In this document: positions 2,050 through 31,957 of the stretch, piece by piece | Numbering within the stretch: position 1 is the first letter of the stretch | Layout: every line of letters starts with the position of its first letter | DNA from: Armatimonadota bacterium | GTDB lineage: Bacteria > Armatimonadota > HRBIN16 | Direction: 5' to 3' | Length of the DNA stretch: 64,000 nt | Assembly (NCBI GenBank): GCA_026003195.1 | Contig: BPGU01000003.1 | Coordinates: forward strand, 62,001 to 126,000 | The notes under the pieces: model-generated | The model's database searches: none | The model's input: the letters and a program-made list of their open reading frames with translations, nothing else | Told to the model about the DNA's origin: nothing | Translations under genes and position numbers: made by a program

Positions 2050-2064
2050 TCCCGGCTATCGCCG

Positions 2065-3234: not shown

Positions 3235-3238
3235 CTGT

Positions 3239-4045: not shown

Positions 4046-4051
4046 GTGCTT

Positions 4052-4312
4052 TTAAGCCGCTTCTCGCTCCTCTTGCGGTTCTTCTGAGACGGGTGGTTCC
4101 TCCGAGACAGGTCGGTTCTCTACGGGCTGGCGCGTTGTCCGAGAAGCGTCCAAGAGAACCTGCAACACTATCATGACCGCTGCGAGCATCACGAACACGG
4201 TTGCCGCACGCAGGAGGCTCGTGGAAAGCGATATGCCACTCCAGCTCGCCAGGAACCATGTCCACAACGCGCCCCAAAGAGCCACAAACCACGTGAGCCG
4301 ACTTGCGCTCAT
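4052..4312 (-). CDS. Small two-helix membrane protein
   Basis: 86 residues, family not recognised. Two hydrophobic helices (about residues 6-24 and 33-53) form a hairpin. A charged tail follows, with a short repeat (VSEEPPVSEEP) that is rich in Glu and Arg and ends REAA. The ATG at 4312 has GGAGTAGGAG immediately upstream. A good sigma-70 type promoter lies 25-50 bases further upstream. It is the first gene of the unit that continues into the FliA-type sigma factor after 6 bases. A membrane-bound regulator of the sigma factor is conceivable but is only an inference from position. Confidence 0.6.
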   Translation of the reverse strand: MSASRLTWFVALWGALWTWFLASWSGISLSTSLLRAATVFVMLAAVMIVLQVLLDASRTTRQPVENRPVSEEPPVSEEPQEEREAA

Positions 4313-4335
4313 GCTCCTACTCCGCCACGATAGTT

Positions 4336-4365
4336 AGTATAACACAGTAACTGGAGGATTGCCAA
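4336..4365 (-). promoter_or_regulatory. Sigma-70 type promoter for the small membrane protein / fliA / anmK unit
   Basis: On the minus strand, TTGGCA (4360-4365) and TATACT (4336-4341) are separated by 18 bases, and the ATG at 4312 follows about 24 bases after the -10 box. The boxes match the consensus at 4 of 6 and 5 of 6 positions. Confidence 0.55.
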
Positions 4366-4416
4366 TTGCCGGCTCGCCCCATCACCCCGCGCACAGCGAG
4401 GAAATCCGCCGCAAAA

Positions 4417-4523
4417 GCCTTCTGAGCGTTCATTGCGAGCCGCCCCAAAGGCGGCGAAGCAATCCCCAACGAGAACACAGGACCGCTTCGGCACAAAGTG
4501 CCTCGCAATGACGCAGAAAAGGC
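4417..4523. repeat. Small dispersed repeat with imperfect inverted ends
   Basis: The left end GCCTTCTGAGCGTTCATTGC (4417 on) is mirrored by the reverse complement of the right end, GCCTTTTCTGCGTCATTGCG (ending 4523). Between them are CCGCCCCAAAGGCGGCGAAG and a second short palindrome, CTTCGGCACAAAGTGCC. This form (CATTGCGAG ... GAAGCAATC ... CTCGCAATGA) is a common non-coding intergenic repeat type. It fills most of the 228-base gap between glgA and the small membrane protein; otherwise that gap holds only the promoter at 4336-4365. Confidence 0.6.
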
Positions 4524-4540
4524 TGCCCCTCTACGAGATG

Positions 4541-6028
4541 CTACGCCGCCTCCAGAACGGCTTTGCGCAGTTCCAAGGCGCGCAAGTACAGTTCAGCATA
4601 CTCCCCGGCTGCGCGATTCCAGGAGTAATCCGAGCGCAGGGCGGTATCCACCAGCTTGCGCCACGCCTCTGGTCGCTGATATATCTTGAGCGCACGCTGG
4701 ATAGCCTTCAACAGTTCCGCCGGGTCATACGGCTCAAACACGAAACCGTTGCCTTTGCCCGTGCGTGGCGAAAAGTCGGTGATGGTATCTGCCAGTCCGC
4801 CCGTTTTGCGCACGATGGGAATGGTGCCATACCGCAGTGCCATCAGCTGCCCCAACCCACACGGCTCGAAGCGCGAGGGCATCAGGAACATATCACTGCC
4901 CGCGTAGATGCGTTGAGCCAGGTCGGGGTCAAAGCCGATGAAGGCGCGCATCTGTTCGGGATGTTCCTTCGCCAGCTGTTGGAAGAGCTCCTCATAGCGC
5001 GGATCGCCCGTGCCCAGCACCACGAACTGAAATCCCAGCTTCAGTATCTGCTCCGCGATAGGAGCGATAAGGTCCAGCCCCTTCTGGTCTGCCAGGCGGG
5101 TAATCATCCCGAGCACAGGTGCGTTTGGAGCAACGGTGAACCCGCACTCTTTCTGCAAAGCCTCTTTGCATTTCGCCTTGCCCGAGGGGTCCTCTGCACT
5201 GTAATGGGCAGGGATGCGCGGGTCGGTGGCAGGGTTGTATTCTTCGTAGTCGATGCCGTTGACGATGCCCTCCAGCCTGCCCAGTGAGGCGATATACTGC
5301 AGTAGCCCTTCCATCCGACAGCCGTATTCAGGCGTCTGAATCTCCTTCGCGTAGGTCTTGCTGACAGTGTTGACCATATCGGAGTAGACGATACCGCCTT
5401 TGAGGAAGTTCACCTTGCCGTAGAACTCCAGCCGCTCGTAATGGAACAGCCACTCCGGCAAGCCTGCCTTCCACAGCAGCTCGTACCCGAACTCGCCCTG
5501 GTATGCCAGATTGTGGATGGTGAAGACCAACCCTACCTGCTGCCACTCCGGCTGGTGCGCATGGAGGATGCGGATGTACACCGGCACAAACCCCGTATGC
5601 CAGTCATTCGCATGGATGATGTCGGGCATCCAGTCCAGCTCTTCCAGCATCAGCGGAATGGTGCGGTCAAAGAAAATGTAGGGTTCGGGTTCCAGGGCAT
5701 AAATCTTTTTCGACTCGGTGGCTTCGGTGAAGTACCGGGGGTGACCGACGAGATAGACCGGTGTGCCATCCTTCAATCGGGTGCGTCGGATCGTCGCCTC
5801 TTCAGTGGTCATGGGGTTGATAGGCACCGGCAGGCTTTTGATGATCGTGCGCACCGGATAGTCGGGGTTTTTCTCAATCATCCGGTAGCAGGGCATCGCG
5901 ATGCGCACATCGTGTCCCAGTGCACGCAGTGCTTTGGGCAACGCGCCCGCCACGTCCGCCAGTCCGCCGACCTTCGCCAGCGGAGCAACCTCTGCGGAAA
6001 CAATCAACACCTTCAAGCTACGAGCCAT
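4541..6028 (-). CDS. glgA: Glycogen synthase (ADP-glucose dependent)
   Basis: 495 residues from the ATG at 6028, which has GGAGGAACAACC just upstream; the longer open frame overlaps the previous gene and is not GlgA-like. The N-terminal motif LKVLIVSAEVAPLAKVGGLA includes the KxGGL ADP-glucose-binding signature. The GT-B C-terminal half includes ITRLADQKGLDLI and PSRFEPCGLGQLMALRYGT with the catalytic glutamate. The enzyme adds glucose from ADP-glucose to alpha-1,4 glucan chains in glycogen storage. The length is normal for GlgA. It overlaps the end of the FlhG-like gene by 16 bases, so the two are co-transcribed and probably translationally coupled. No other glycogen gene is adjacent. Confidence 0.95.
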   Translation of the reverse strand: MARSLKVLIVSAEVAPLAKVGGLADVAGALPKALRALGHDVRIAMPCYRMIEKNPDYPVRTIIKSLPVPINPMTTEEATIRRTRLKDGTPVYLVGHPRYFTEATESKKIYALEPEPYIFFDRTIPLMLEELDWMPDIIHANDWHTGFVPVYIRILHAHQPEWQQVGLVFTIHNLAYQGEFGYELLWKAGLPEWLFHYERLEFYGKVNFLKGGIVYSDMVNTVSKTYAKEIQTPEYGCRMEGLLQYIASLGRLEGIVNGIDYEEYNPATDPRIPAHYSAEDPSGKAKCKEALQKECGFTVAPNAPVLGMITRLADQKGLDLIAPIAEQILKLGFQFVVLGTGDPRYEELFQQLAKEHPEQMRAFIGFDPDLAQRIYAGSDMFLMPSRFEPCGLGQLMALRYGTIPIVRKTGGLADTITDFSPRTGKGNGFVFEPYDPAELLKAIQRALKIYQRPEAWRKLVDTALRSDYSWNRAAGEYAELYLRALELRKAVLEAA

Positions 6029-6969
6029 GGTTGTTCCTCCTCTTTCGGTATGGGCAGCAGAGCAGGTGGGCGCAGATGGTCCGAAAGCCGCGCTAAGAAC
6101 GCATGGAGCCCTCTGCCCGCGCCGGGATGTGGCATGATTCGAGAACGAACCTCTGCTGCCAGAGCGGACAATCCCTTCGCCGCTGCGCTGTCGGGCGAGC
6201 AAAGCCAGAAACAGGCATTCTGCTCCGCTGCTGCGTTCACATAATTATCTTCCACAATACTGCCCATCATTCGCACTCTTCCCGAAAACTGCCTGGAGAG
6301 CAGCTGCTCGACCTGTGCGCCTATCTTCTGCGCCTGAGTGGGCGAGACACACCGGTTCATCACCCAGCCGACCTGCAGGTCCGCACGCTGGAGAAGCAGC
6401 CGCTTCACCAGACTATACGTGCGCAACAGACTTTCCCGTTGCGGCAGGGCTATCGCCAGCACCATATCCGAGGACAGCGCGTATGCCAGCGTATCGGTAG
6501 ACTCCGGGTGACCTGTGTCGATGAGAACCACATCCGCCAGCACTTCCAGACTGCGCAGGCGCTCGATGATATCGCGCTGTCCCTGAGCGGGGAGGCGTTT
6601 GAGAGCGAGGATGCGTGTTGCTCCCGGCAGCACACGGATACCTGCTGCGCCAGACACCAGGATCTCCGGCAGGTCGCGCCTTTCGGCGAACAGGTCTTCG
6701 AGGGAATAGCGAGGCTCCGTTCCTAGTAGACGGCTACAGGTGAGCGCTCCCACGTTGCCGTCCAGCAACACCACGTGGCGCCCTGTCTGCCCCAGCAGAG
6801 CGGAGAGGTTCGTGGCAAGGGTGGTTTTGCCTGACTCCGGCGTGCCGCTCACCACGCTAATCACCCACGTGCCCATGCGCAAACCGGGCGTAATGCCCAG
6901 CACGCCGTCCGCAGGGCGTTGCGAGATAAGCCTCCGAAGCCCAAATGCCTGATCAGGAACAACAGTCAC
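6013..6969 (-). CDS. MinD/ParA-family ATPase, FlhG-like, with a non-standard Walker A
   Basis: 318 residues; the GTG start at 6969 has AGAGGGAGG 5-8 bases upstream. The SIMIBI fold is seen in WVISVVSGTPESGKTTLATN (about residues 34-53), VVLLDGNVG (Walker A'), a glycine/proline segment like FlhG (GIRVLPGATRI) and VVLIDTGHP (Walker B region). The usual MinD/ParA deviant P-loop KGGVGKTT is replaced by TPESGKTT, so the signature lysine is missing. FlhG regulates flagellum number or placement; MinD places the septum. The nearby sigma-28 factor and the sigma-28-like promoter upstream favour a motility role, though other ParA-like roles remain open. It overlaps glgA by 16 bases. Confidence 0.75.
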   Translation of the reverse strand: MTVVPDQAFGLRRLISQRPADGVLGITPGLRMGTWVISVVSGTPESGKTTLATNLSALLGQTGRHVVLLDGNVGALTCSRLLGTEPRYSLEDLFAERRDLPEILVSGAAGIRVLPGATRILALKRLPAQGQRDIIERLRSLEVLADVVLIDTGHPESTDTLAYALSSDMVLAIALPQRESLLRTYSLVKRLLLQRADLQVGWVMNRCVSPTQAQKIGAQVEQLLSRQFSGRVRMMGSIVEDNYVNAAAEQNACFWLCSPDSAAAKGLSALAAEVRSRIMPHPGAGRGLHAFLARLSDHLRPPALLPIPKEEEQPWLVA

Positions 6970-7005
6970 CGTCTACCTCCCTCTGCACTCTCTCACCTGT
7001 GAGAA

Positions 7006-7031
7006 TTATCGGGTGAGTCCGGAAGTTTTTA
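7006..7031 (-). promoter_or_regulatory. Candidate sigma-28 (FliA) promoter of the FlhG-like gene
   Basis: Minus strand TAAAAACT (7024-7031), 10 bases, then CCCGATAA (7006-7013). The FliA consensus is TAAAGTTT, 11 bases, GCCGATAA, so the -10 box matches 7 of 8 positions and the spacer is one base short. Transcription would begin near 6998 and leave a leader of about 30 bases containing the ribosome site of the GTG start at 6969. Confidence 0.45.
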
Positions 7032-7091
7032 CAGGTCAGGCGGAAGGACGGTGCAGTTTTGGGGGCGTACGCCCTCCATATGCTCTGTCCC

Positions 7092-8090
7092 TCAATACCT
7101 CGCCGCTTCGTGCGCCACCTGATAGGCGAACTCCACTTCCTCCAGCGGGGTGCCGGGCTGTACCATGTGTGAGGTGCAGAAGATGTAGCCACCGCCGGGC
7201 TTCAGCGTGCTCATTACCCGGCGAATCTCATCCGCCAGTTGCTCGCGGGGCAACCCCCGCCCCAACATGGTGCGCACGTCCAGCCCCCCGTAGATGCCCA
7301 GTCTGCCGTAGTAATCACGCTTCACCTGCGCGGGGTCCATCCCCGCCGATTCCTGCACCGGATGCATCACGCGAAAGCCCAGATCCGCCACACCGTCCAG
7401 CACCGGGGTGATGTAGCCGTCGCTGTGCAGGGAGAGCAGTCCTCCCCGGCGCTTCACCGCATCGCAGATAATCTTCTCGGCAGGGTAGATGACCTCCCAC
7501 CACGTTTGCGGGCGGAACATCAGCGCGTGGTTCATGCCCCAGTCGTCGGAGATATGAATGACGTCCGCGCCCAGTTCGAGGCAGTTCTCGGCATAGCGAG
7601 CAGACCATCGTGCGATGCGCTCATACAGTTGCCTGCACAACTCGGGGCGCAACGCCAGCTCCATCAGATTCTGCGCCTGCCCGATCACACCGTTTGCCGC
7701 CTCGAACACGCCCGGCGTCTGCACGAACACGGCTCGCCCGCGTCGCCCTTTGTGGTGCTCTATCTCGGCACGAATAGTGGTGTAGATTTCGGGGTCATCG
7801 GGATCGGTGAACTCCGCTTCCAGAGCCGCATCCAGCGTGTACACCCAGCCGTAGGCAGGTTCATACTCGGAATCAGGGCTGTTGGGCGGCGCCCCCTGTT
7901 TCAGAAACCCCCTGGCGGGGAATGCCTGCGTCATGTCCACATCCAGCGCATCACAGAAGGCTTCGAATGTGCCGTACTTTGCCAGAATATCGTCGATCAC
8001 GCCGGGTTGCCCGAATATCCATATATAAATCGGCACACGGTCCGGCTCCTGAAAGTGTAAAGTCGTCAAAACGCGCTCGCGTGCAAGCAT
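7092..8090 (-). CDS. Uroporphyrinogen decarboxylase-like methyltransferase
   Basis: 332 residues with the URO-D fold: ERVLTTLHFQEPDRVPIY at the N-terminus, ADVIHISDDWG in the middle, and LHSDGYITPVLDGVADLGF, GIYGGLDVRTML and GGYIFCTSH near the end. True HemE catalyses uroporphyrinogen III decarboxylation. This subgroup (MtaA/MtbA-like) instead moves methyl groups between corrinoid proteins and other acceptors, and the downstream position after a RACo gene supports that. The H-x-C zinc motif of MtaA-type enzymes appears here as H-S-D (LHSDGY), so the canonical thiol-activating zinc site is changed. It starts 9 bases after the RACo gene with GAGGTGAACCC before the ATG. The substrate is unknown, and no corrinoid protein gene is adjacent. 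Confidence 0.8.
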   Translation of the reverse strand: MLARERVLTTLHFQEPDRVPIYIWIFGQPGVIDDILAKYGTFEAFCDALDVDMTQAFPARGFLKQGAPPNSPDSEYEPAYGWVYTLDAALEAEFTDPDDPEIYTTIRAEIEHHKGRRGRAVFVQTPGVFEAANGVIGQAQNLMELALRPELCRQLYERIARWSARYAENCLELGADVIHISDDWGMNHALMFRPQTWWEVIYPAEKIICDAVKRRGGLLSLHSDGYITPVLDGVADLGFRVMHPVQESAGMDPAQVKRDYYGRLGIYGGLDVRTMLGRGLPREQLADEIRRVMSTLKPGGGYIFCTSHMVQPGTPLEEVEFAYQVAHEAARY

Positions 8091-8099
8091 GGGTTCACC

Positions 8100-9977
8100 T
8101 CAATCCAGGCTCTCCACAAAGCCGAGATGGTCCATATACGCCTCCTGATATTGCGGATTGCCGGTCATCACCACATGTTTCATCTGCTGTGCCAACCATT
8201 GGGCACGCTTGCGCTCGCGCACGGAACGCAGGGCGATTTTCGCACCTGCACCTGCCGCGTTGCCCACTGGCTCGATGCGCTCCAGCGGGATGGGAGGCAA
8301 CAAGCCGATGCGCTGTGCCGAGCGCAGGTTCACATACATACCGAACGCCCCCGCGACCAGCAGCCGCTGTACATCTCCCCACGTGATACCAGCCTCTTGC
8401 AGCAGCACCTCCATCACCGCGCGGATGGAACCCTTCGCCAGCTGCAGCTCGCGCACGTCCTTCTGGGTCAGTATCACTCCTTCGGGAGTACCCGACGCCT
8501 CTGGCGCGACCAGCTGAAACGCTTTCTGCTCGCACAACATGGTGAGATGGGAACTCCACCACACGCCGCCGTCTTCATTGCTCATACGCCCCGCCTCGTT
8601 CACCGCTCCAATGTCCAGCAGGCACGCGGCGGCATCAATCAGCCCCGAGCCGCAGATGCCTTTGGGCAGCCCACCACCGATGGTGGTCACATGCAGCCAG
8701 TGATTCTTGCCGTTGCTCTGCACGCTTATCTGCGAAACCGCCCCGGTCTCCGCGCGGATGCCCTGATAGATGCGCCCGCCTTCGAAAGCGGGACCTGCCG
8801 CGGCGGAAGTGCAGTAGTACTTGCTCCCATGCCGCAGTACCACCTCGCCGTTGGTGCCGATGTCCAGTGCCAGAACCGTCTCCCCATCAGGCTGATGCAG
8901 ATGCGTCAGTGCCACTGCCACTGTATCCGCTCCCACATAGCCCGCCACGCAGGGCAAAGTAGTTAACAGGGCGGATGGGTTCACCCGCAAGCCAATCTGC
9001 CGCGCCTCCACACTCAGCAGGTCGGTAAACACCGGCACATACGGCGCGACGGCGATGGAGTTCGTGTTCACCCCCAGCAGGAAGTGCAACATGGTGGTGT
9101 TGCCCACCGCCACCACTTCAAAGATGTCGTGTGGGTCTACCCTCGCCGCCTGGCACGCCTCGGCGATAATCTCGTTCATGCCGCGCACGACCGCGTGTTG
9201 CAGTGACCTCAAGCCCGACGGCTCGTGATAGACGAAGGTCAGGCGAGAGACCACGTCGTCGCCGTACTGTACCTGCGGATTGAGGCGGGCAGCATGAGAG
9301 AGCTCCTTCCCGCTTTGCAGGTCTATCAGATACCCCACCAGCGTGGTGGTGCCGATGTCGAAGGCGATGCCCAGCAAGGGTGTAGCCTCGTCGGGTTGCA
9401 CCGCCAGCAGGCGCGTTTCGTCGGGATGCTCCGGATCGTGGAACAGCACGACAAACGGGCGAAAATCCGTTTCTCGCAGCACTTGAGGCAGCTGCCGCGT
9501 GACGCTCAGCGGAACCTGTTCCACCTCTATCGGGATACCGTGTTGCTCGCGCAGAGCATCCAGCAGGCGACGCAGGTCGGAGCGCTCATCGGAAGTGCTC
9601 GGTGTGGGCAGCAGCAGAGGCAAACGGCGCACGGCGGGTTCCAGAGTGACGGCACGCTCCACGGCAGTGGTCAGCACCTGCGCGATGGCAGGACGGCTCT
9701 CCATTGGCACCTCCAGCTGCACATTGCCCATCAGCCGATGCCGGCAGGCGAGCCTCCAGCCCGCTGACAGGTCCTGGGCTGGGACGTGACGCAACTCCTC
9801 TTCAGTCGGTTCAGGAACCGCTCCGCCGATGAACCGTACCCTGCACTTTCCGCATACGCCAAACCCACCGCATGGTGTTTCGACAGCGACCCCTCCCTCC
9901 CACAGTGCACGCACCAGCGGCGTGCCTTCGGGCAGGTCTATGCTTATCTCATCAGGCAGAACAAACACTCGAGCCAT
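8100..9977 (-). CDS. RACo-type corrinoid activation protein: 2Fe-2S ferredoxin plus ASKHA domain (DUF4445)
   Basis: 625 residues from the ATG at 9977; the frame upstream of this has no similarity to the family. Residues 1-80 are a plant-type ferredoxin with C36-x5-C42-x2-C45 and C78 as likely [2Fe-2S] ligands. A linker and the large C-terminal ASKHA ATPase-like domain follow, with GIAFDIGTTTLVGYLIDL, VLALDIGTNGEV and LLVAGAFGMYVNL. RACo uses ATP to drive one-electron reduction of Co(II) corrinoid back to Co(I) in corrinoid methyltransferases. Its partner here is presumably the URO-D-like methyltransferase downstream. Length and order of domains are typical. The corrinoid protein must be encoded elsewhere or be supplied by another system. 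Confidence 0.87.
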   Translation of the reverse strand: MARVFVLPDEISIDLPEGTPLVRALWEGGVAVETPCGGFGVCGKCRVRFIGGAVPEPTEEELRHVPAQDLSAGWRLACRHRLMGNVQLEVPMESRPAIAQVLTTAVERAVTLEPAVRRLPLLLPTPSTSDERSDLRRLLDALREQHGIPIEVEQVPLSVTRQLPQVLRETDFRPFVVLFHDPEHPDETRLLAVQPDEATPLLGIAFDIGTTTLVGYLIDLQSGKELSHAARLNPQVQYGDDVVSRLTFVYHEPSGLRSLQHAVVRGMNEIIAEACQAARVDPHDIFEVVAVGNTTMLHFLLGVNTNSIAVAPYVPVFTDLLSVEARQIGLRVNPSALLTTLPCVAGYVGADTVAVALTHLHQPDGETVLALDIGTNGEVVLRHGSKYYCTSAAAGPAFEGGRIYQGIRAETGAVSQISVQSNGKNHWLHVTTIGGGLPKGICGSGLIDAAACLLDIGAVNEAGRMSNEDGGVWWSSHLTMLCEQKAFQLVAPEASGTPEGVILTQKDVRELQLAKGSIRAVMEVLLQEAGITWGDVQRLLVAGAFGMYVNLRSAQRIGLLPPIPLERIEPVGNAAGAGAKIALRSVRERKRAQWLAQQMKHVVMTGNPQYQEAYMDHLGFVESLD

Positions 9978-10074
9978 CGGCAAAGGATACCTTTCTGCGC
10001 TTGCTTTGTGGTAAAGTTCCGAAAGGCGAGAGGAGAATCCTCTTCGGTTGCTACCGCTTCCATTAAATAGAAAG

Positions 10075-10094
10075 AGGGGCACTGCCGTGCCCCT
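10075..10094 (-). terminator. Hairpin terminator after the dockerin gene
   Basis: Perfect 8-bp stem AGGGGCAC / GTGCCCCT with a TGCC loop, 22 bases past the stop at 10116. On the minus strand it is followed by CTTTCTATTT, a weak U-rich tail. Confidence 0.6.
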
Positions 10095-10115
10095 GAGAGA
10101 GTGAGAGGGGGAGGG

Positions 10116-11264
10116 CTATTCATCGCCGATGGCTCCGAAGTTGCGCACCAGTATCCCGAAGTCGAACAGACTGACCTCTTCATCGCCGTCCAGGTCGGCA
10201 TTGGGGTTCCAGCGGCTGTCTTCGGGGAAGCTTCCAAAAGCTGCGACCAGCATACCGAAGTCGAACAGAGACACTTCGTTGTCCCCATCGACGTCACCGT
10301 TGCGTAGAGAGGTTTCGATGTGCACCGTACCGTTCAGGTTGATCGAGGAAAGGGTGCGGCGCAACCAGTGCTCTCCTTTCAGCGATATATCGTAAACACC
10401 GCGCAAACGTGTGGTTACTTGCAGCCTGCCGTTGCTGTCTAGCGGAAGCAAGTGTTCCTCCAGCGGTTCGGTGCTACCCTGGGTGCGAATCTGCATCTGC
10501 ACCTGACGTCCCTGCAGTGAGCCTAAATAGTCTTCCAGAACCACTTGCGCCACCAGACGAGTCTGTGCGCTGCGCACATGGATGGTCGCTGTCTGCATGG
10601 GCAGATGTTCACCAAAGCGATGATAGCGCCGCACACCGTCTGTAGCGAGCAGCGAATTGGGCAACACGCCACTGGCATCTGGCACACTGGTGAGGGTAAC
10701 CGGTATCTGCGTACCCTCGGCAGTATCCTCTTTCACGCGCAGATAGATATGCCCTACATACCAGGGTTGCGTGAGGTCACTCCCACCGGGAGCCAATACC
10801 ACCCAAAGCGCTCCGGTTGGGGAGAAGACGGCGCTGCTGACATCTTCGGGATGTAGCAGGTTCGCACGCAATGGTGGGGTTTGCTCAGATGCTGCTGCTT
10901 TTGCATGCGCTCGTAGCATCTGTTGCGTTACGTCGGGATGCCAGAAAGCGTTTTCCCGGATGTCGCTAGGGTTGGGCGTGACTATCTCCACAGCAGGATG
11001 GTTCACCTGAAGTAGTGCGCCCAGCAGATACCAGCGGGTGACGTCACCAACAGGCTGAAACTGGAAACCGACAGTCAACCTGACCAGGTCACCCGGCTCC
11101 ACCTCCAGCGAAGAGACGGGTTGACTCGCTATGTGTGGCGTGGGTGACGAGTCCGCTATACTGGCAGGCGAAAGGTCGAAAAAGGCTCTGGGCTGGGCGT
11201 ATACTTGCTGATGCCAACCTGCCCACAGCGACAAAGTCACCATGAAAGCGAAAAGGCTTTTCAT
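10116..11264 (-). CDS. Secreted protein with C-terminal type I dockerin
   Basis: 382 residues. A signal peptide (about 1-23, ending VYAQ) is followed by a beta-rich region of ~270 residues that resembles a cohesin-like or generic Ig-like fold, for example DLVRLTVGFQFQPVGDVTRW. The last ~65 residues form a dockerin with two Ca-binding loops, DVDGDNEVSLFDFGMLV and DLDGDEEVSLFDFGILV. Dockerins bind cohesins; in Armatimonadota-like genomes they often occur singly on surface proteins without a cellulosome. The start overlaps the previous prepilin stop region with TGAGGAGG as ribosome site, so the two are one transcript. A hairpin terminator follows. The function of the middle domain is not recognised. 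Confidence 0.75.
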   Translation of the reverse strand: MKSLFAFMVTLSLWAGWHQQVYAQPRAFFDLSPASIADSSPTPHIASQPVSSLEVEPGDLVRLTVGFQFQPVGDVTRWYLLGALLQVNHPAVEIVTPNPSDIRENAFWHPDVTQQMLRAHAKAAASEQTPPLRANLLHPEDVSSAVFSPTGALWVVLAPGGSDLTQPWYVGHIYLRVKEDTAEGTQIPVTLTSVPDASGVLPNSLLATDGVRRYHRFGEHLPMQTATIHVRSAQTRLVAQVVLEDYLGSLQGRQVQMQIRTQGSTEPLEEHLLPLDSNGRLQVTTRLRGVYDISLKGEHWLRRTLSSINLNGTVHIETSLRNGDVDGDNEVSLFDFGMLVAAFGSFPEDSRWNPNADLDGDEEVSLFDFGILVRNFGAIGDE

Positions 11265-11277
11265 CAGATAAACCTCC

Positions 11278-11982
11278 TCAGTCGTCCCTGCCTGGGTGGT
11301 GCAGGTCTATCCTGCCATCAGGTGTCCAGGTTTGCTCGAAACGGAGCCATCGGGCATGTCCGTCCACAAAGGTGTAGTTAGCTCCTCCCAGATGCCAGTT
11401 CATCGCCAGCTCATCCTCTGGCAAAAAGAATGTGCCGCAATCGTTCGGCCATCGCCACGCAGCAGAGTGATAATGGTCGATGGTGGCGTTTGGTTTTGCC
11501 TCCGAAATGTAGATTGTACGGGCAGGAGCCTTAACCGAAGCGAGTGTATTGTAGCCAGTACAGTGTGTAGTTAGCTCATCTACACCCAGCTGAGGCAGCA
11601 TCCAGAAGTTCGTGATGTAGCTGGTCTTGCGCACCGTGCGGAAGCCTGGTAGAGGGGTTGTCCAGTTTGTGCTGGGGTCGGAAGGGCAGCGGTACAGTAG
11701 TTTGTTTTTGGTATACGGCTCCAGCGTGTGCAACCATACCCAAGGAGCATTGGTGCCGGTATGCGAGTCGAGCGGAAAGCTCTCGTCGTAGTCCTGGGCA
11801 TACATGTTCACTGCCAATCCCATCTGACGCATGTTGCTCAGGCAAGAGGCTTGACGTGCTTTTTCCCGCGCCTGAGCAAAAACGGGGAACAGTATCGCTG
11901 CCAGTATAGCAATAATCGCTATAACTACCAGCAGCTCTATCAGCGTGAACGCCCATACTTGTTGAACAGAAAGACGTTTCAT
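11278..11982 (-). CDS. Prepilin-type protein with H-x9-DG motif (DUF1559-like)
   Basis: 234 residues from the ATG at 11982 (GAAGGAGGAATTGCCG upstream). The N-terminus has a short leader, then [20 protein letters not shown] and [20 protein letters not shown], the standard class III prepilin cleavage and methylation region. The C-terminal part has [17 protein letters not shown], the H-x9-DG motif typical of DUF1559 pseudopilins that are abundant in Planctomycetes and Armatimonadota. It would be processed by PilD-type peptidase (present at 52729-53754). It lies among secreted dockerin and PEP-CTERM genes rather than in the pilus cluster. A pilus subunit or a secretion-related pseudopilin are both possible. 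Confidence 0.85.
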
Positions 11983-24099: not shown

Positions 24100-24594
24100 T
24101 TATTGCGAGTTCCATGATAGCAGATTGCTTATAAGTCTATCTATTACACCAGCAAGCACCCATACAGGCTCTCCTTCCACAAGTACTCCTACCTCATGAT
24201 TGACAACCATACCACCCCACGATAAGTTCGCCGAACCTATGACAGCTTTTTTTCTGTCTGCTATAACTACCTTAGCATGAAGTTCTCCTCCCCCTACATC
24301 GTCGAACGCGTAAATCTCCACGTGCGGAAAGCGTGCTTTCATGTCCAGCAGATTCTTCCGGACAACTGGCGAGAACGTCCATGGCTTGTTCAGAATAAAG
24401 ATTACTCTAACGCCACGTGCTGCAGCCTGCTGAGCCTTCAATAACAGGTCTACAGCCGATTCTGCAATAAGGTATGCAATAATCGTCACCTCATCCTGTG
24501 CCGATAAGATGATCTCTTCAACTGCAGGCTGTACTGCGCGAAATTCGTGGCCGGTGAAGTACCTGCCAGTGACCAGCAGCTGGTACGAACTCAT
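24100..24594 (-). CDS. drmC: DISARM protein DrmC, phospholipase D-like
   Basis: 164 residues from the ATG at 24594, which overlaps the drmB stop in an ATGA. A single PLD (HKD) motif is seen as H106-x-K108-x4-D113 in ELHAKVVIADRKKAVIGSAN. PLD proteins need two HKD motifs, so a dimer is likely. In known DISARM systems DrmC is a nuclease-like PLD protein. It is the last gene of the operon. It shares the lower GC content of the drm block. The product is probably active in phage DNA processing, although in some DISARM tests drmC was dispensable. It is not a phospholipase by context. Confidence 0.85.
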   Translation of the reverse strand: MSSYQLLVTGRYFTGHEFRAVQPAVEEIILSAQDEVTIIAYLIAESAVDLLLKAQQAAARGVRVIFILNKPWTFSPVVRKNLLDMKARFPHVEIYAFDDVGGGELHAKVVIADRKKAVIGSANLSWGGMVVNHEVGVLVEGEPVWVLAGVIDRLISNLLSWNSQ

Positions 24595-26372
24595 GGCGCG
24601 TTCTCCAGCAAAACCTCCCGGTCCAGCCACAGGTTTCTGTGTTCGCATGAGGTTTCCGATATGAGCGCACAGCCATAGCAGGCGGGCCCACTATACTTTC
24701 CTAGATAGAAATGATTTTCTGCACAGAGCGGGTCATTCGAGCATGCTTCCGCCAGTTCAATTGCTTTTTGTAAGATACTATCAAAGTACGGAACAAGAGA
24801 AATCAGCCCACCTGAGGAGCCCTCGCTTCCCGGCTGTGTGGCGTACAGCACAATTCCCCCTTTTGCGCTGTCCGATGTGCAATCTATACGGGTGTAAACG
24901 CGCTCACGTATCGCGGCAGAAGAGTAGCCGGCGTCGACAGAAATCGCTCTGATGAGAAAATGGGACAGCGTATGCCACCAGACAAACACAGGGTGCAATT
25001 CAACTTTTTTCTTGTCTCTGAAGAGGTGGTCAGGATAGTCGGTATGTCCGTTCTGCCACGCCTGCTTCCATTTCAGATTCAGAGGGGATTCGCCGCGGCA
25101 GTCAACTGACTCACTGATCAGCGAGATGAAAATACCTTCCCCTAAGAACTCTGTTCCGGGATACCACCTGTTATTGTCTTTATCCGTGAACGATACATCT
25201 ACAACATCAGGAGGCTGAGATGTACCTCCCACCTCCCTTCTGTAACCTGTCTGCACTGTGACCGATCTCAGCCTCAGCAGGGGAGCTATCCTGAACTGAC
25301 ATTTCCTTCTCGGCCCCCACACACATTTTATCTTTGATAGATCCACCTCAAAAAGAACAACTCCAGACCGATCACGCTTGGGAGGGTATCCGTTAACAGA
25401 TGCATTGAGAAGTTCGTCAAACTCTTCCAGTATTAGGTCAGAATAGTTCGATGATCGCAGCTGGCTGATATCCTGTAGTGCTTGCTGTATATCCTGCCAA
25501 TCGTAGCTATTGATTTCTGCACACACAGAACGTTCCAGCAATCCCTCTTTCGCGGTCTTCTCCAGCTCGCTTATAAAGTCAGACTTGCTAGCAAAAGAAT
25601 TTTTGCATGCAATAACCGTCCTTATAGTTCGAGATTCAAGCAAACGGTGAAGTCGTGTAGCACGAGGCGGGATGGTGAAAAGGGTACGCAGCTCAGGTAT
25701 GCGCAGGTTAGCAGCCTGCCTTTGTATCATAAAAGCTTTTTCAGAGCACCCTGGACGCTCGGCACTGTTTCCGATACTCTCCCTTTCGGGAAAGCGACCG
25801 GAGCATTTCCATGCCTGCCTGTAAGCCCAGCCCAAGTTCACCTTTCTGCTGCACTCAGGACACTCAATCTGCACTTGGCTGAGGCTGCTACCCGCTTGGC
25901 ACCAATTATAATACTTTGATTGTCTGGAGCACGAGTTTCCGCCATGTACAACAGCAAACCAGTCCACATCATCCAGATGCCCCTTCGGACAGGCAAGCAC
26001 AAAACGTATCGCCTCTATATGACCTCCTTCGGTATGGCAAACAGGACAGGTTTGGCCGAGGTATAACACATAGCACCCCCGCGGGTGGCATACCGTGCAC
26101 AGGTTCCAAGATGGAAAACTCTTTGTTTTGTAGATATCGCTCGACTCAGGTTTCCCCAGCTCAGCGTTAGAAGGTAGCCGGAAGACCCTAGCTCCAGCGA
26201 GCAACCCCTGAGAAACCCTCTGGTCCGAAATCTCGAAATCCTCCGGCAGGTGTTCGCCGTAGAACAGACCTTTATCCGGGAGAGGGATCAGACGGGGCCC
26301 GTGAACCCCTTCAATGATAGCACCAGGACCATAGGTATAAACGAACTGTGAACGTCTGATGTGCTGGGTCAT
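24591..26372 (-). CDS. drmB: DISARM protein DrmB (DUF1998)
   Basis: 593 residues from the ATG at 26372 (GAGGAGGAGAAG upstream); a TTG at 26387 is less likely. The N-terminal RRSQFVYTYGPGAIIEG and the C-terminal PACYGCALISETSC with NLWLDRE are typical of DUF1998. Many Cys pairs suggest zinc sites (CTVCHPRGC, CPVCHTEGG, CPECSRK). DrmB forms a complex with the helicase DrmA in the DISARM system that loads on free-end or unmethylated phage DNA. It starts 11 bases after the drmA stop and its own stop overlaps the drmC start. Length is in the usual range (~600). Confidence 0.9.
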   Translation of the reverse strand: MTQHIRRSQFVYTYGPGAIIEGVHGPRLIPLPDKGLFYGEHLPEDFEISDQRVSQGLLAGARVFRLPSNAELGKPESSDIYKTKSFPSWNLCTVCHPRGCYVLYLGQTCPVCHTEGGHIEAIRFVLACPKGHLDDVDWFAVVHGGNSCSRQSKYYNWCQAGSSLSQVQIECPECSRKVNLGWAYRQAWKCSGRFPERESIGNSAERPGCSEKAFMIQRQAANLRIPELRTLFTIPPRATRLHRLLESRTIRTVIACKNSFASKSDFISELEKTAKEGLLERSVCAEINSYDWQDIQQALQDISQLRSSNYSDLILEEFDELLNASVNGYPPKRDRSGVVLFEVDLSKIKCVWGPRRKCQFRIAPLLRLRSVTVQTGYRREVGGTSQPPDVVDVSFTDKDNNRWYPGTEFLGEGIFISLISESVDCRGESPLNLKWKQAWQNGHTDYPDHLFRDKKKVELHPVFVWWHTLSHFLIRAISVDAGYSSAAIRERVYTRIDCTSDSAKGGIVLYATQPGSEGSSGGLISLVPYFDSILQKAIELAEACSNDPLCAENHFYLGKYSGPACYGCALISETSCEHRNLWLDREVLLENAP

Positions 26373-26383
26373 TCTTCTCCTCC

Positions 26384-29300
26384 TCAAGTTTCAAAGCCGC
26401 AAGTTTCCTCGATATCCCTCAGAGACTGCGGAGCGTTTTCATAGACGACTTGGAGATCCTTATGATGCTGGTGCTGAGGATCGCCAAGAACCACATGATG
26501 CTTTGGAGCACTGGATATAGCGTATTCGACATAGCGAAGAGAGATCTTCTGTTGACGGGCAACCTGGTGCCACTTGTCCAGAAGTGCACCTGCTTGGTTT
26601 TCGACGTATCCTTCCGAAGGTTGTCGGTAGGGGGGCTGGGCCCGGGCGCGCCGTTCAAGCAGAACAGGTAAGGACTGTACCTCCTTACTTTGTCTCTCTT
26701 TGCTCATCTCCATAGCGTCATCCTCACGATACCATTTAACACTGGTGAACCGCTGATTTCTCAGCACCGCTACAGCAATTGGCCCCGCCGCACGCAGGAC
26801 AACTCCCGGAGCAAAGGGGCTCACCGATATCGGCTCTACAAACCGGTGCAGCTGGGCGTGGTAACCACAGAAGAACTCATAGTGGCTTAGGTCTCTGGGA
26901 CGGGTTGCTCTCAGGAAAGCGACCACCAGAGCACCTGTACGCCTCCCTACACGTCCTGTGGACTGGATGTACGCAGATGTTGTCTTCGGTTGCCCGTGAA
27001 CGACCATCAGACTGATGCGGGGGATATCCACACCAGTGCCAAACATCGAAGTGGTAAACAGCGCCTCTGATGCATCAGGATACTGCCTGTTGAGCGTTTC
27101 CAGCACCGCCGGCAGATGAACAGACGGAGTACGGCTGGAAAGCTCCTGAACCTTTGCATCATCTATCTGCCTCACCGACACTCCTTCCATGGTTGCTATG
27201 TCCTGCAAGCGCTGGGGTATATCCTGTCGATACAGAGCGCGGGCACCACCCAGCTCACGAATTGCGTTAAAGTATCCAGTCAGCGTCCAGAATGGGTCTA
27301 TTTGCGCAGAAGCACACTTGTTTGCCGTATGCAACAGGCGTGCCCAGATGCGTACAACAGGAGTCAACGGCCCCCTGCCGGGCGCGCAGACCCCAACGTA
27401 CAAGCGCCCCGGCTTTCTATCCTGAAGTGGGTGCTCCTGAGCGAAACGGATAAAGAAGCTATCCTTCACGGTCAACCCGGGTGGGGGAAAGGTTTGCAAC
27501 GAGCGGTTGAAAACAGACTTCACCTGTTCTTGGGCTCGCCTGACTGTAGCTGTGGAGGCAATATACTTTGGCGAATGGTTTTCCGCCTCAGAACACAGGA
27601 AGTCTACCGCAGTTTCATAAATACCCACGAGCCCTCCCAGAGGTCCCTCAATGAGGTGAAGCTCATCCTGTAGAATGAGGTCTGGGGGTTCGAGTGATGG
27701 AATAGAAATATAATTACGTGCATTTTTGCTACCGGTGGGGCTGGGGTGTTCCTGACTATCCTGCTGCGAAGGATGTGCATATGGACGATAATATCCCCAA
27801 ATACAGTGATAGTGGTTTACATTGCCAAATAACGCCGAAGCACGGGGTTCGAAAGCGAGGCGAGCAAATTTGTCCACAGTTGCTATCACGATGGAAGGAC
27901 AGCGATGATATACCTGCTCGTCCACAGTGTAAGCAGGGATGGGTACTCTATCGGAATAGTAAGGCTGCCCTTTGAGCCTGAAGGGTTCCTGCGCATAGAT
28001 GCTCAGATTACCATCAGGAAGTTTACAAAGTGGTAGCTTCTCACTGTGGTACGCCTGATAATCTCCCATCGGAGCTCCTTCGAGCCAAGGTATGTGAAGT
28101 GGGCAGTTTGGATTGGGACAGTAGATATCAAAGTCGTAGACGACGGGAGTATCCTGTTTCCCGATGTATCTGCGCATGAAGTAACCGGGGCGAGAGGCAC
28201 GTGCAAAGGCTCTTCTGCCTTTTAACTGGTTGAGAACCTTTTCCACAGCCTGTTGCCACCACTCGTCGACCTCATCCCCAGTCACTTTTTGTTTACACGA
28301 TAGTTCAACCTGCAAGGTATTAAAACCCGGAGATAGAGGATCCACTTTCAGAAGGGTTACCTGAAAGGCACCTTGCTGAGGCTGCGGCAAGCTTGGCGGA
28401 ATGGAAGACAGATTGCTGACAACATAGTAGAGTATATGTGATCCTGCTGAGAGATCAGAAAACGCCAGCAGAGTATTACAGGCTGGGCAGTTCAAGACCT
28501 GAGCCGGTTCTCCTGCTCCTCTGTTGCCATTTAATATGTCAATTGCTCCATAAATGTATCCTTTACCTCCCCATGTCTTACGTAGACGATTGGGAGTAAC
28601 ACCACCTCCGACCCATAATCCTGCACCGAAACGGGAAGACCCCCAGATGAAGTTATCAGTCATATTACACGTTCGCGGTCGCCAGCCGACAGTTCCACAC
28701 TTGCCCAGACCATATACCCTGAGATATTCACAGGCTGTTACCATCTTGAGCGTGCGGCGGAACTGCTGGATGGTCAACAGACGAAGCGTATACCGCGAAA
28801 TGACGGCAACACCAGCGCCTGTCCTGTCACCACTCTCCCGCTTTAGAGCTCTGCGCCTGCGGTAAGCCATGGTGAAGGCTGCCAGTGCAAGGTACGCCTC
28901 CGTTTTACCAGCTCCTGTAGGTACCCACAACAGGTCGCACACATTGCGTTCCGCTGATTGAGGATTGGCGATAGACTCCAGACACATCAGAATAAATGCG
29001 AGCTGAAACGGATGCCACTCCAGTGTTTTCTTACCGTTTCCTTCTGGCCATTGCGCCTGTACAGCCATTGCCTTCATCGCAAAACAGAAAGACAACCGAA
29101 CATCATCGTTCTTAAGCAGAAGATTAACACCCTCCTGTATCCTGTTCGCAACTCGCTCACTTTCGGCTATCAGCTCATTAGCAATCCTTTTCTCGTCTAA
29201 TGGTAGCGATTCTGCCTCAGCACGAAGTCCTCCGATCCACCGCTTGTATCCATCAACCAAGGGTTGAAGCCCTCTTTCCATCTGCTCTGGTTCCCATAGT

Positions 29301-30307
29301 TCCGCGAGTTTGTCTGCACTGGTTTCTGGACCCGGACCGTATTCACTGCACCAACTCAGGAGCGGCGCCTGCACAGCGTAGAGCGGCACAAACTCCGTTC
29401 TGACATCGGGAGGTGAGAAACGCTGGCGGTCCTGTTCCGACAGAAGATCTCCATCAACCCAGTAAAATGGCGGTTGTTTCTGTGCGTCGGGGAAATCCAG
29501 ATTGAGGTTCTCCACCTTCGCCTCCGGGTCAATTTTTCTCCACACAGCAGAACACAGATACCCTCTCGCCAGAACAGGATACTCTCGATACAGAAAATGA
29601 AGTCGCTTATCCTCCTCGTCAGCGGAGGGACAGGTGATAAAGGAAATGATGTTTGTGCCCGGCAAACACGTGACACGTATCTGAGGTTGAAAAACACAGC
29701 ATTCTGTAAAGAACCGCTTTTTTCCCTCGTCCTCCATACCTTGGTTCTGAGCACGCATTCTGTTTACGAGATACAGTATGATGATAAATGTATTGTCTCC
29801 CAGTTGTCTGCGGCGCGCGTATAGCGAAACTTCAGCCAGCATATTATTGCTCTGGCACAGTTTACCTTCTGCGTCAATCCACAGCTCCTGAGCTTCACAC
29901 TGAAACTGGAGGCGCTGAATGCTAAAACGGGGTTTTCTCTCCCACTTTTCGCCCGAACCGCTCTGAGAGTAACGTGCCCAAGTGATGCACACTTCAATCT
30001 CTGGGGCTCCCTCTGCTTGAACAGCAAAAAACAAACCAATAGAGTGCGGTCGACTCTGCGGATCAAGTAATGGCGAGAGAAGAGGAGGTGCAAGGATGTC
30101 CATATCCGCCGACTCGTCTTCTGCGTCTTCGGTGTATCCTTCAGCAGGTAGATCTGCTGTCGCGTCAATATCGCGCTCAGGCTCCTCCTGTGGAGCCAGA
30201 ACGCCAGTGATGTACTCGTTCACGGGACTCTGTAGTAGGGTTTCATACATCCCTCCACGCGGACCAAGTACATCCTTCACCAGTTCAGTGACAAACATCT
30301 CTCGCAT
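26384..30307 (-). CDS. drmA: DISARM helicase DrmA
   Basis: 1307 residues. Walker A (LLWVPTGAGKTEAYLAL) is near residue 460, Walker B (PDLILQDELHLIEGP) near 880, motif III (STATVRRA) just after. FGTGVDIPRISLMVVHGQPK and TTSAYIQSTGRVGRRTG near 1090-1120 are motifs V and VI of an SF2 helicase. The long N-terminal part before Walker A is typical of DrmA. A partial zinc-like pair (NCPACNTLL) lies about residue 610. DrmA together with DrmB binds and unwinds phage DNA. It overlaps the end of the glycosylase gene by 23 bases, and drmB follows at 11 bases. The start at 30307 has AGGAGGAACACGGCAGTC upstream. Confidence 0.93.
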   Translation of the reverse strand: MREMFVTELVKDVLGPRGGMYETLLQSPVNEYITGVLAPQEEPERDIDATADLPAEGYTEDAEDESADMDILAPPLLSPLLDPQSRPHSIGLFFAVQAEGAPEIEVCITWARYSQSGSGEKWERKPRFSIQRLQFQCEAQELWIDAEGKLCQSNNMLAEVSLYARRRQLGDNTFIIILYLVNRMRAQNQGMEDEGKKRFFTECCVFQPQIRVTCLPGTNIISFITCPSADEEDKRLHFLYREYPVLARGYLCSAVWRKIDPEAKVENLNLDFPDAQKQPPFYWVDGDLLSEQDRQRFSPPDVRTEFVPLYAVQAPLLSWCSEYGPGPETSADKLAELWEPEQMERGLQPLVDGYKRWIGGLRAEAESLPLDEKRIANELIAESERVANRIQEGVNLLLKNDDVRLSFCFAMKAMAVQAQWPEGNGKKTLEWHPFQLAFILMCLESIANPQSAERNVCDLLWVPTGAGKTEAYLALAAFTMAYRRRRALKRESGDRTGAGVAVISRYTLRLLTIQQFRRTLKMVTACEYLRVYGLGKCGTVGWRPRTCNMTDNFIWGSSRFGAGLWVGGGVTPNRLRKTWGGKGYIYGAIDILNGNRGAGEPAQVLNCPACNTLLAFSDLSAGSHILYYVVSNLSSIPPSLPQPQQGAFQVTLLKVDPLSPGFNTLQVELSCKQKVTGDEVDEWWQQAVEKVLNQLKGRRAFARASRPGYFMRRYIGKQDTPVVYDFDIYCPNPNCPLHIPWLEGAPMGDYQAYHSEKLPLCKLPDGNLSIYAQEPFRLKGQPYYSDRVPIPAYTVDEQVYHRCPSIVIATVDKFARLAFEPRASALFGNVNHYHCIWGYYRPYAHPSQQDSQEHPSPTGSKNARNYISIPSLEPPDLILQDELHLIEGPLGGLVGIYETAVDFLCSEAENHSPKYIASTATVRRAQEQVKSVFNRSLQTFPPPGLTVKDSFFIRFAQEHPLQDRKPGRLYVGVCAPGRGPLTPVVRIWARLLHTANKCASAQIDPFWTLTGYFNAIRELGGARALYRQDIPQRLQDIATMEGVSVRQIDDAKVQELSSRTPSVHLPAVLETLNRQYPDASEALFTTSMFGTGVDIPRISLMVVHGQPKTTSAYIQSTGRVGRRTGALVVAFLRATRPRDLSHYEFFCGYHAQLHRFVEPISVSPFAPGVVLRAAGPIAVAVLRNQRFTSVKWYREDDAMEMSKERQSKEVQSLPVLLERRARAQPPYRQPSEGYVENQAGALLDKWHQVARQQKISLRYVEYAISSAPKHHVVLGDPQHQHHKDLQVVYENAPQSLRDIEETCGFET

Positions 30308-31016
30308 GACTGCCGTGTTCCTCCTGTATTGAAACTGTACTCATGCCAGAAGAACAGTACATTCGAACCGGACACGATAGACACGCTGGATTGCGACTTC
30401 TACACACCGTTGCTCCCAAGTCGATGAGCGCAAAGTTGAAGTCTCTGGGACACTCTTTATCCAGAAGGCGGTTCAGCACACTCCGAAACAGCCTGCTGCG
30501 CCTTGAACCATCGGTAATCCGCAGACCAAACAATCTCCCAACAATCCTGACGGTGTTCGTATCAAGGAGAGCCTCAGGGTATCCCCATGCAAAACACCTT
30601 ACCGCTGAGGCAATATAGTGGCTTATGCCTGGCAGCGATTGTAACTGTGCACTGTCTTCAGGCAAAGTGCCTCCGTGCTTTTCCACAATTTGCTTTGCCA
30701 TCTCGTACAGCAACCGTACTCTCCAGATCAGCCCGGCTGACCGAAGCTCATCCTCAACTTCTTGGTAGTCTGCGACAGCCAGTCGTACAACATCTGGAAA
30801 CCTGCGCAGAAAGCGATGATACAGAGAAACTACCTGCTCTGCACGGGTTCTGTGCAGCAGGATTTCAGCAACAAGTATTCTATACGGGTCGCGAGTCTGC
30901 CTCCACGGAAAAACTCGCTGATTATCCTTCCACCATCTGAGCAGATCGCGGCGGAAGGCGACGACGTCGAATTCCGCAGGGAGGTGCCACTCTAGTTTCT
31001 GTCTCTCTGCACTCAA
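30285..31016 (-). CDS. Mig.MthI-like DNA mismatch (G:T) glycosylase of the HhH-GPD superfamily
   Basis: 243 residues with a TTG start that overlaps the methyltransferase stop (TTGA). It follows the MutY/endonuclease III layout: VFPWRQTRDPYRILVAEILL, then HRTRAEQV, LPGISHYIASAVRCFAWGY and LLDTNTVRIVGRLFG. The 4Fe-4S site is C205-x6-C212-x2-C215-x5-C221. Tyr134 stands where endonuclease III has a catalytic lysine, and Asp152 is the conserved acid. The tyrosine is the mark of Mig.MthI, the thymine glycosylase that sits beside a 5-methylcytosine restriction-modification system in Methanothermobacter and removes T from G:T mismatches caused by 5mC deamination. An A:G (MutY) specificity is less likely because the MutY C-terminal NUDIX-like domain is missing. 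It is embedded in the DISARM operon between drmMII and drmA. Confidence 0.85.
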   Translation of the reverse strand: MSAERQKLEWHLPAEFDVVAFRRDLLRWWKDNQRVFPWRQTRDPYRILVAEILLHRTRAEQVVSLYHRFLRRFPDVVRLAVADYQEVEDELRSAGLIWRVRLLYEMAKQIVEKHGGTLPEDSAQLQSLPGISHYIASAVRCFAWGYPEALLDTNTVRIVGRLFGLRITDGSRRSRLFRSVLNRLLDKECPRDFNFALIDLGATVCRSRNPACLSCPVRMYCSSGMSTVSIQEEHGSHARDVCH

Positions 31017-31957
31017 GAACCATCACGCTCCAGCATTTCCCGAATGATTCGTGCACAGGACAATGATACCACCGGGCTGACAGCATCTGCAATCATCTGG
31101 TATTTTTTCGACATGGCAAGACCTTCTGGCAGGCGAAACCCCCGGTCAAAACCCATGATACACAGGGCTTCACGCACAGATATTACACGCAATGGGAAGC
31201 TGTTTTGTCCTGCTTCTGGATGCAGGATATAGGTCTTCATAATATTTCCAAACGAAGGGGCAGGTCTTTCATAATTCAACCGGTACCAGCCGTATTTACC
31301 CGTCTTGTAGTACTTTTCATAACGCCCGATGGTGTGAAGCTGTGGCCAGACGTGGTCTGGATATTCACCACGCTGAAAATCTCTCAGCCATCCTATTGCC
31401 GAACCCACAGTTGCTGGCTCTTTCTGGTTCATTTTAAGGCGCAGGAAGAACTCGCTTGCCCCCGACCGAGACCTTCGTATACCTATGGTAAACAAACGGT
31501 GCCTTGCTACAGGCGCGCCGAAATTGCTGTAACATACCACCTCACGGTCGACCGTATATCCGTTCTTGAGCATGTCCTCAACCGCACAACGATACCTTTC
31601 ATCGTTCCGCAAGAGGGGAACATTTTCCATAAAGAAAATCTCAGGACGGATCTCTAAGACATGCACAAAAAAGATATCCAGCAAGCCACTGTCTGGGTGT
31701 TTGTCGCCACGACGCATTATATTCAGACTCGACCATGGGCGGCATGGAGGGCCTCCAATGACTACAGGGGTATTTTCGAAAGTTGTGTAGACGGATTCAC
31801 TTACCAGATCAACCTGCAATGCAGTGCCGATATTGTTGATTTCGAATATCTGCTTCGTAGCTGGCTCAACGTCGACGCCCGTGACCCTGAAGCCAGCTTT
31901 TCTGAAACCTGCGGATAGCCCACCAACGCCTGCGAATAAATCGAGGACATTCAGCAT
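31013..31957 (-). CDS. drmMII: DISARM 5-methylcytosine DNA methyltransferase DrmMII
   Basis: 314 residues. Motif I (DLFAGVGGLSAGF, residues 6-18), motif IV with catalytic Cys72 (IGGPPCRPWSSL), motif VI (MENVPLL, about 110-116), motif VIII (ARHRLFTIGI), a target recognition region and motif X (GNIMKTYILH...; ADAVSPVVS) are in normal order. It would mark host DNA at a cytosine so that the DrmAB complex spares it. The recognition sequence cannot be read here. The ATG at 31957 has AAAGGATGCTGA upstream. It is the first gene of the operon, and its stop overlaps the start of the glycosylase gene. A C-rich base composition of the neighbouring genes is absent. Confidence 0.92.
   Translation of the reverse strand: MLNVLDLFAGVGGLSAGFRKAGFRVTGVDVEPATKQIFEINNIGTALQVDLVSESVYTTFENTPVVIGGPPCRPWSSLNIMRRGDKHPDSGLLDIFFVHVLEIRPEIFFMENVPLLRNDERYRCAVEDMLKNGYTVDREVVCYSNFGAPVARHRLFTIGIRRSRSGASEFFLRLKMNQKEPATVGSAIGWLRDFQRGEYPDHVWPQLHTIGRYEKYYKTGKYGWYRLNYERPAPSFGNIMKTYILHPEAGQNSFPLRVISVREALCIMGFDRGFRLPEGLAMSKKYQMIADAVSPVVSLSCARIIREMLERDGS

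What the first reader, a model, noticed from the sequence alone, without database searches (positions are those of the whole stretch)
24100..31957. DISARM operon with a reduced or altered gene set
Known class 2 DISARM has drmE with drmMII-drmA-drmB-drmC, and class 1 has drmD with drmMI. Here neither drmE nor drmD is present in the operon, and the glycosylase occupies the extra position. It may be a third arrangement in which drmE is lost or replaced.
Basis: partly seen in the sequence, partly recalled or inferred. Interest (0 to 1): 0.7.

Follow-up and report, generated by a model that had tools for sequence, protein, structure and literature searches.

The report
DrmE-less DISARM with methylation-linked glycosylase
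This is a real anti-phage DISARM operon that lacks the gene drmE, as do its close relatives; the extra glycosylase gene is best read not as a stand-in for drmE but as a repair partner of the system's DNA-cytosine methyltransferase, mending the mutations that methylation causes.

Summary
The window holds a compact minus-strand operon of five overlapping genes: C5-cytosine methyltransferase (DrmMII), HhH-GPD glycosylase, long DrmA, DrmB and a short DrmC. It sits as a low-GC insertion between two conserved host genes. DrmE is absent from the whole genome by two independent models, and DrmD by one. No long-DrmA (DrmAL) genome tested has DrmE (0 of 24), so a drmE-less layout is normal for this lineage. 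In 12 of 12 DISARM loci with both genes in view, the glycosylase lies directly beside a C5 methyltransferase, even when the pair is on the opposite strand from drmA. The same pair occurs without DISARM (Thermus plasmids, other defence loci). In one locus (L184) it sits beside an intact DrmE. Its active site matches the thymine/uracil-DNA glycosylase Mig at six of seven diagnostic positions and differs from MutY, of which the genome has a separate copy. Best explanation: drmE-less, class-2-like DISARM carrying a Mig/Vsr-type repair enzyme that corrects T:G mismatches from deaminated 5-methylcytosine. New variant of a known kind; enzyme activity not shown.

The parts
31013..31957 (-). C5-cytosine DNA methyltransferase, DrmMII type (314 aa)
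   Evidence: PF00145 121 bits; PADLOC DrmMII PDLC02655 351 bits over 3-311; motifs DLFAGVGG, GGPPC, ENV
30285..31016 (-). HhH-GPD DNA glycosylase of Mig type, predicted T:G/U:G mismatch glycosylase (243 aa); start overlaps the methyltransferase stop by 4 bp
   Evidence: PF00730; best PDB relatives MutY and Mig 1KEA; [4Fe-4S] Cys motif; Mig-type specificity residues F27/E42/R47/A50/Y126/D144
26384..30307 (-). DrmA, long form (1307 aa), SF2 helicase
   Evidence: NCBIfam DISARM_DrmAL 1604 bits > 999; PDB DrmA 7S9V E=2e-122; PTGAGKT, DELH, QSTGRVGR
24591..26387 (-). DrmB (598 aa) with MZB/DUF1998 zinc-binding domain
   Evidence: NF038324 451 bits > 240; PF09369; PDB DrmB 7S9V E=4.5e-42
24100..24648 (-). 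DrmC, short form (182 aa): a single PLD nuclease domain without the N-terminal ~72 profile positions
   Evidence: PADLOC DrmC 147 bits; NF038319 matched only at profile 73-222 of 236, 88.6 bits, below cut-off 133; HKD motif HAKVVIADRKKAVIGSAN
24100..31957 (-). whole DISARM operon: ~8-kb insertion between scpA and a 2274-aa ORF
   Evidence: In G187 (L090) the two flanking genes lie ~180 bp apart; in window and G184 the DISARM genes fill this place; GC 0.511 vs 0.583/0.618

Best explanation
It is a drmE-less, class-2-like DISARM system of the long-DrmA (DrmAL) lineage. The C5 methyltransferase marks host DNA. The DrmA-DrmB helicase complex engages foreign DNA lacking the mark, and the DrmC PLD nuclease probably degrades it. 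The glycosylase belongs to the methyltransferase, not to the DrmAB machine. Methylated host cytosines deaminate to thymine, giving T:G mismatches. The enzyme excises that T so that base-excision repair can restore C, sparing the methylated sites from C-to-T mutation. It is the functional counterpart of Vsr beside Dcm and of Mig on plasmid pFV1. Shown: gene content, absence of drmE and drmD, methyltransferase-glycosylase linkage inside and outside DISARM, coexistence with DrmE in one relative, Mig-type active-site residues, purifying selection. Inferred: substrate, biological role, and the anti-phage mechanism, which is carried over from studied DISARM.
For: Gene assignments. DrmE absent in own and all 24 long-DrmA genomes tested, with positive controls. 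Glycosylase beside a C5 methyltransferase in 12 of 12 DISARM loci with both in view (spacing from -79 to +43 bp) and in 0 of 25 loci without such a methyltransferase, Fisher p=3e-5. Independently of DISARM, the eight best glycosylase matches in 400 genomes of one phylum all sit beside a C5 methyltransferase; three of those loci have no DISARM genes in view. Same pair on Thermus plasmids and near MthTI R-M on pFV1. L184 holds MTase-glycosylase-DrmE-DrmA-DrmB. Residues F27, E42, R47, A50, Y126, D144 equal Mig; all seven MutYs compared have L/M, Q, V, Q at 27, 47, 50, 187, and 50 and 187 are reported to set specificity (PMC2714593). Separate full-length MutY and an endonuclease III-like gene in the genome. 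All five genes at dN/dS 0.15-0.34 against G184.
Against: No activity data. Position 187 is Phe, not Mig's Leu; several DISARM relatives have Val at position 50 as MutY does. By overall sequence the protein scores somewhat higher against MutY (163 bits) than Mig (128 bits). The tree is weakly resolved for Mig and the plasmid proteins. About half of the C5-methyltransferase DISARM loci have no glycosylase, so it is not essential to DISARM.
Confidence: 0.8

Rival explanations
1. The glycosylase is a true DISARM effector that replaces drmE: it makes abasic sites in unmethylated or base-modified phage DNA, like a restriction glycosylase or the Brig enzymes.
For: Conserved in the operon of many long-DrmA systems; DNA glycosylases can act in defence (PMC11078745, PMC13160076, PMC10273834); pairing with a methyltransferase also fits a modification-restriction pair.
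Against: Coexists with DrmE in L184; found in non-DISARM contexts with the methyltransferase; absent from about half of the C5-methyltransferase DISARM loci; Mig-type pocket; the Brig enzymes are described as uracil-DNA-glycosylase superfamily and PabI as a HALFPIPE fold, not HhH.
Confidence: 0.08
2. The glycosylase is a MutY-type adenine glycosylase captured by the island, a second A:8-oxoG repair enzyme unrelated to methylation.
For: TIGR01084 MutY matches at 185 bits; MutY chains are the best PDB matches by sequence.
Against: Far below the MutY cut-off (185 vs 286.5); no C-terminal domain; MutY-specific Q47/V50/Q187 replaced by R/A/F; the genome already has a full-length MutY; strict linkage to C5 methyltransferases.
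Confidence: 0.06
3. A decaying class 2 DISARM that has recently lost drmE and is no longer functional.
For: drmE missing; DrmC short.
Against: Same five genes intact and under purifying selection in G184 at the same site; drmE absent across the long-DrmA lineage; catalytic motifs intact; short DrmC is usual in long-DrmA loci.
Confidence: 0.05

Closest known systems
DISARM class 2 (drmE, drmMII, drmA, drmB, drmC)
   Same: C5 methyltransferase of DrmMII type, DrmA, DrmB and DrmC in one operon
   Different: drmE absent from operon and genome; long DrmA; short DrmC; extra glycosylase beside the methyltransferase. PADLOC requires DrmE for type II (PMC9252829)
DISARM class 1 (drmD, drmMI, drmA, drmB, drmC)
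   Same: DrmA and DrmB are detectable homologues of the solved DrmAB 7S9V
   Different: No drmD anywhere in the genome; C5 instead of N6-adenine methyltransferase
NCBIfam DISARM_DrmAL (NF038326) systems
   Same: DrmA passes the curated cut-off (1604 vs 999 bits); same drmE-less operons in Chloroflexota and an archaeal MAG
   Different: Cyanobacterial and Streptomyces members have no glycosylase and place the methyltransferase elsewhere
Mig (thymine/uracil-DNA glycosylase of plasmid pFV1) next to the MthTI restriction-modification genes
   Same: HhH-GPD fold with [4Fe-4S], no C-terminal domain, six of seven specificity residues, encoded near a C5 methyltransferase
   Different: F instead of L at position 187; linked to DISARM instead of a type II restriction enzyme
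Dcm/Vsr
   Same: A T:G repair enzyme genetically tied to a C5 methyltransferase
   Different: Vsr is a PD-(D/E)XK nicking endonuclease, not a glycosylase (PMC12907096)

Membership tests
DISARM (any class) | DrmA helicase plus DrmB (MZB/DUF1998) encoded together | tested here: met
   DrmA 1604 bits and DrmB 451 bits over curated cut-offs; both match 7S9V DrmA/DrmB
DISARM (any class) | DrmC PLD nuclease | tested here: met
   PADLOC DrmC 147 bits, HKD motif intact; N-terminal part missing and below the NCBIfam cut-off
DISARM (any class) | Protects against phage | not testable with these tools
   Needs an infection assay
DISARM class 2 | DrmMII C5 methyltransferase | tested here: met
   PDLC02655 351 bits; PF00145
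DISARM class 2 | DrmE | tested here: not met
   No match to NF038316 or PF24957 in the genome; positive controls ring
DISARM class 1 | DrmD | tested here: not met
   No match to NF038317 in the genome
DISARM class 1 | DrmMI N6-adenine methyltransferase | tested here: not met
   None in the operon; its only methyltransferase is C5; rest of the genome not searched for DrmMI
Mig-type T:G glycosylase | HhH-GPD domain with [4Fe-4S], catalytic Asp, no C-terminal domain | tested here: met
   PF00730, C-X6-C-X2-C-X5-C and LLDTNT, 243 aa
Mig-type T:G glycosylase | Specificity residues F27, E42, R47, A50, Y126, D144, L187 | tested here: inconclusive
   Six of seven identical; 187 is F
Mig-type T:G glycosylase | Encoded with a C5 methyltransferase | tested here: met
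   12 of 12 DISARM loci with both genes; also Thermus plasmids and other loci
Mig-type T:G glycosylase | Excises T or U opposite G | not testable with these tools
   Needs an enzyme assay
MutY | Adenine-specificity residues V and Q (EcMutY V45, Q182) and C-terminal domain | tested here: not met
   A and F at these places; protein ends after the Fe-S motif

The most novel reading that the evidence does not exclude
The glycosylase takes part in defence: the methyltransferase-glycosylase pair is a base-excision module that abasic-marks unmethylated or modified phage DNA for DrmAB/DrmC, making a glycosylase-armed DISARM class.
Probability: 0.08. Interest if true: 0.8.

Novelty: new variant of a known kind. 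Interest (0 to 1): 0.38.

Why it matters
It suggests drmE is not a universal part of cytosine-methylating DISARM: a widespread long-DrmA lineage lacks it, so whatever drmE does is dispensable or done otherwise there. It also points to a mutational cost of carrying a cytosine-methylating defence system and shows a paired repair enzyme that travels with the methyltransferase from one defence system to another. Annotation pipelines that require DrmE for type II would not call this locus class 2.

Tried and rejected
Single-protein DrmA scan of genome contigs found nothing; an alignment query gave 20 loci. Viral contigs gave no relative. The ~740-aa gene upstream of drmA in L034, L058 and L059 was tested as a possible DrmE; it is a two-HATPase protein, not DrmE. 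Literature search for DISARM with a glycosylase found no paper in the held library; the primary DISARM paper (PMC5739279) is not held. No structure prediction was run: residue-level comparison with Mig and MutY already separated the options. A thermophily argument was not pressed: the IVYWREL estimate of about 50 C is crude, and not all glycosylase-bearing hosts look thermophilic.

Full report
Observation. The window (G000:C3:62001-126000) carries on the minus strand a tightly packed operon: C5 methyltransferase, HhH-GPD glycosylase, DrmA, DrmB, DrmC. Gene overlaps of 4, 23, 4 and 58 bp suggest translational coupling. PADLOC, Pfam and NCBIfam name them unambiguously. DrmA passes the long-form model DISARM_DrmAL (1604 vs 999 bits). 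DrmA and DrmB match the solved DrmAB pair 7S9V. Catalytic motifs are intact. DrmC is short and lacks the N-terminal part of the DrmC_I model (profile 73-222 of 236); a preprint says most DISARM DrmC proteins carry an N-terminal four-helix bundle (PMC12458937).

drmE and drmD. DrmE_fam, DrmE_C and DISARM_DrmD find nothing in the 4.58-Mb, 100%-complete assembly. The two DrmE models find nothing in 24 genomes with long DrmA, while both ring in other DISARM genomes. So the layout is lineage-wide. Whether drmE was lost or never present is not settled.

Island and inheritance. The operon lies between scpA and a 2274-aa ORF. In the same-genus genome G187 these neighbours are about 180 bp apart; G184 carries the same five genes at the same place. 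dS of the methyltransferase and glycosylase (0.48, 0.42) is close to that of scpA (0.43), and dN/dS is 0.15-0.34 for all five, which fits vertical descent under purifying selection since the split. GC is 0.511 against 0.583 and 0.618 in the flanks, pointing to acquisition from outside at some time.

What the glycosylase goes with. Long-DrmA loci were gathered from the phylum and from genome contigs and mapped. Of 49 DISARM loci kept after leaving out fragments, 12 have both a C5 methyltransferase and this glycosylase, 12 have the methyltransferase only, 25 have neither, and none has the glycosylase alone (Fisher p=3e-5). In all 12 the two genes touch or lie within 43 bp, including L034, L131 and L186, where the pair is separated from drmA by strand or by another gene. 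These loci share ancestry in part, so the p-value is only indicative. Searching 400 genomes of one phylum with the glycosylase profile, without reference to DISARM, gives eight top matches at 220-376 bits; all eight sit beside a C5 methyltransferase, and three of the loci show no DISARM genes (L183, L185, L187). More distant relatives adjoin C5 methyltransferases on Thermus plasmids and a haloarchaeal plasmid. In L184 the order is methyltransferase, glycosylase, DrmE, DrmA, DrmB. The glycosylase therefore neither replaces nor excludes DrmE.

What kind of glycosylase. It is alignable with both MutY and Mig but has no C-terminal domain. Aligned with Mig itself, taken from plasmid pFV1, it shares F27, E42, R47, A50, Y126 and D144. 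Seven MutYs, including the genome's own 370-aa copy, carry L/M, Q, V and Q at 27, 47, 50 and 187; the window protein has F, R, A and F. Published work names the 50 and 187 positions as specificity determinants (PMC2714593), with the caveat that swapping two residues did not turn MutY into a thymine glycosylase. In the tree, MutY is one clade (100/98), and non-DISARM pairs L183 and L185 nest among DISARM ones (starred branches force at least three changes of the DISARM label), so the pair has moved between systems. Deep branches are poorly resolved.

Mechanism. By analogy with studied DISARM, DrmAB is activated by unmethylated foreign DNA and 5mC damps it (PMC9142583); DrmC is a probable nuclease. 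Cytosine methylation creates C-to-T hot spots by deamination, and Vsr-type enzymes counter this beside C5 methyltransferases (PMC12907096). The glycosylase fits that role here. This step is inferred, not shown.

Novelty. No paper in the held library combines DISARM, DrmA/DrmB and a glycosylase, but the founding DISARM paper could not be read. PADLOC's DrmMII and DrmA models already cover these proteins, so the loci are known to annotators as DISARM; the glycosylase link and its meaning seem undescribed. I call it a new variant of a known kind.

Noticed in passing
L184 (G368:C6), 1481-11284: A canonical-looking class 2 DISARM with DrmE that also carries the methyltransferase-glycosylase pair at its head.
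   Followed up: yes
L034 1343-3547; L058 3090-5330; L059 7693-9999; L185 7527-9701: A ~740-aa protein with two HATPase domains directly upstream of long drmA in three distant phyla, and beside a methyltransferase-glycosylase pair in L185: a candidate DISARM accessory gene.
   Followed up: partly
G000:C3:306780-307394 (L098) and same-genus L070, L071: The genus's own MutY has Ala where other MutYs have the catalytic Glu (VAATMLQQT), so it may be altered in activity.
   Followed up: no
L093 4590-7212; L094 6958-9290: Two same-genus genomes hold 2.3-2.6 kb of other DNA at the same scpA / large-ORF junction, which may be an integration hot spot.
   Followed up: no
L034 9714-11456; L057 8295-10151; L186 10149-11888: A ~600-aa ResIII/DEAD helicase sits beside DISARM or the methyltransferase-glycosylase pair in several loci.
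   Followed up: no
L183 (G291:C180): Methyltransferase-glycosylase pair beside TIR, SLOG/LSDAT and TPR genes, a possible different defence locus; the same genome's DISARM contig (L048) shows no methyltransferase.
   Followed up: partly
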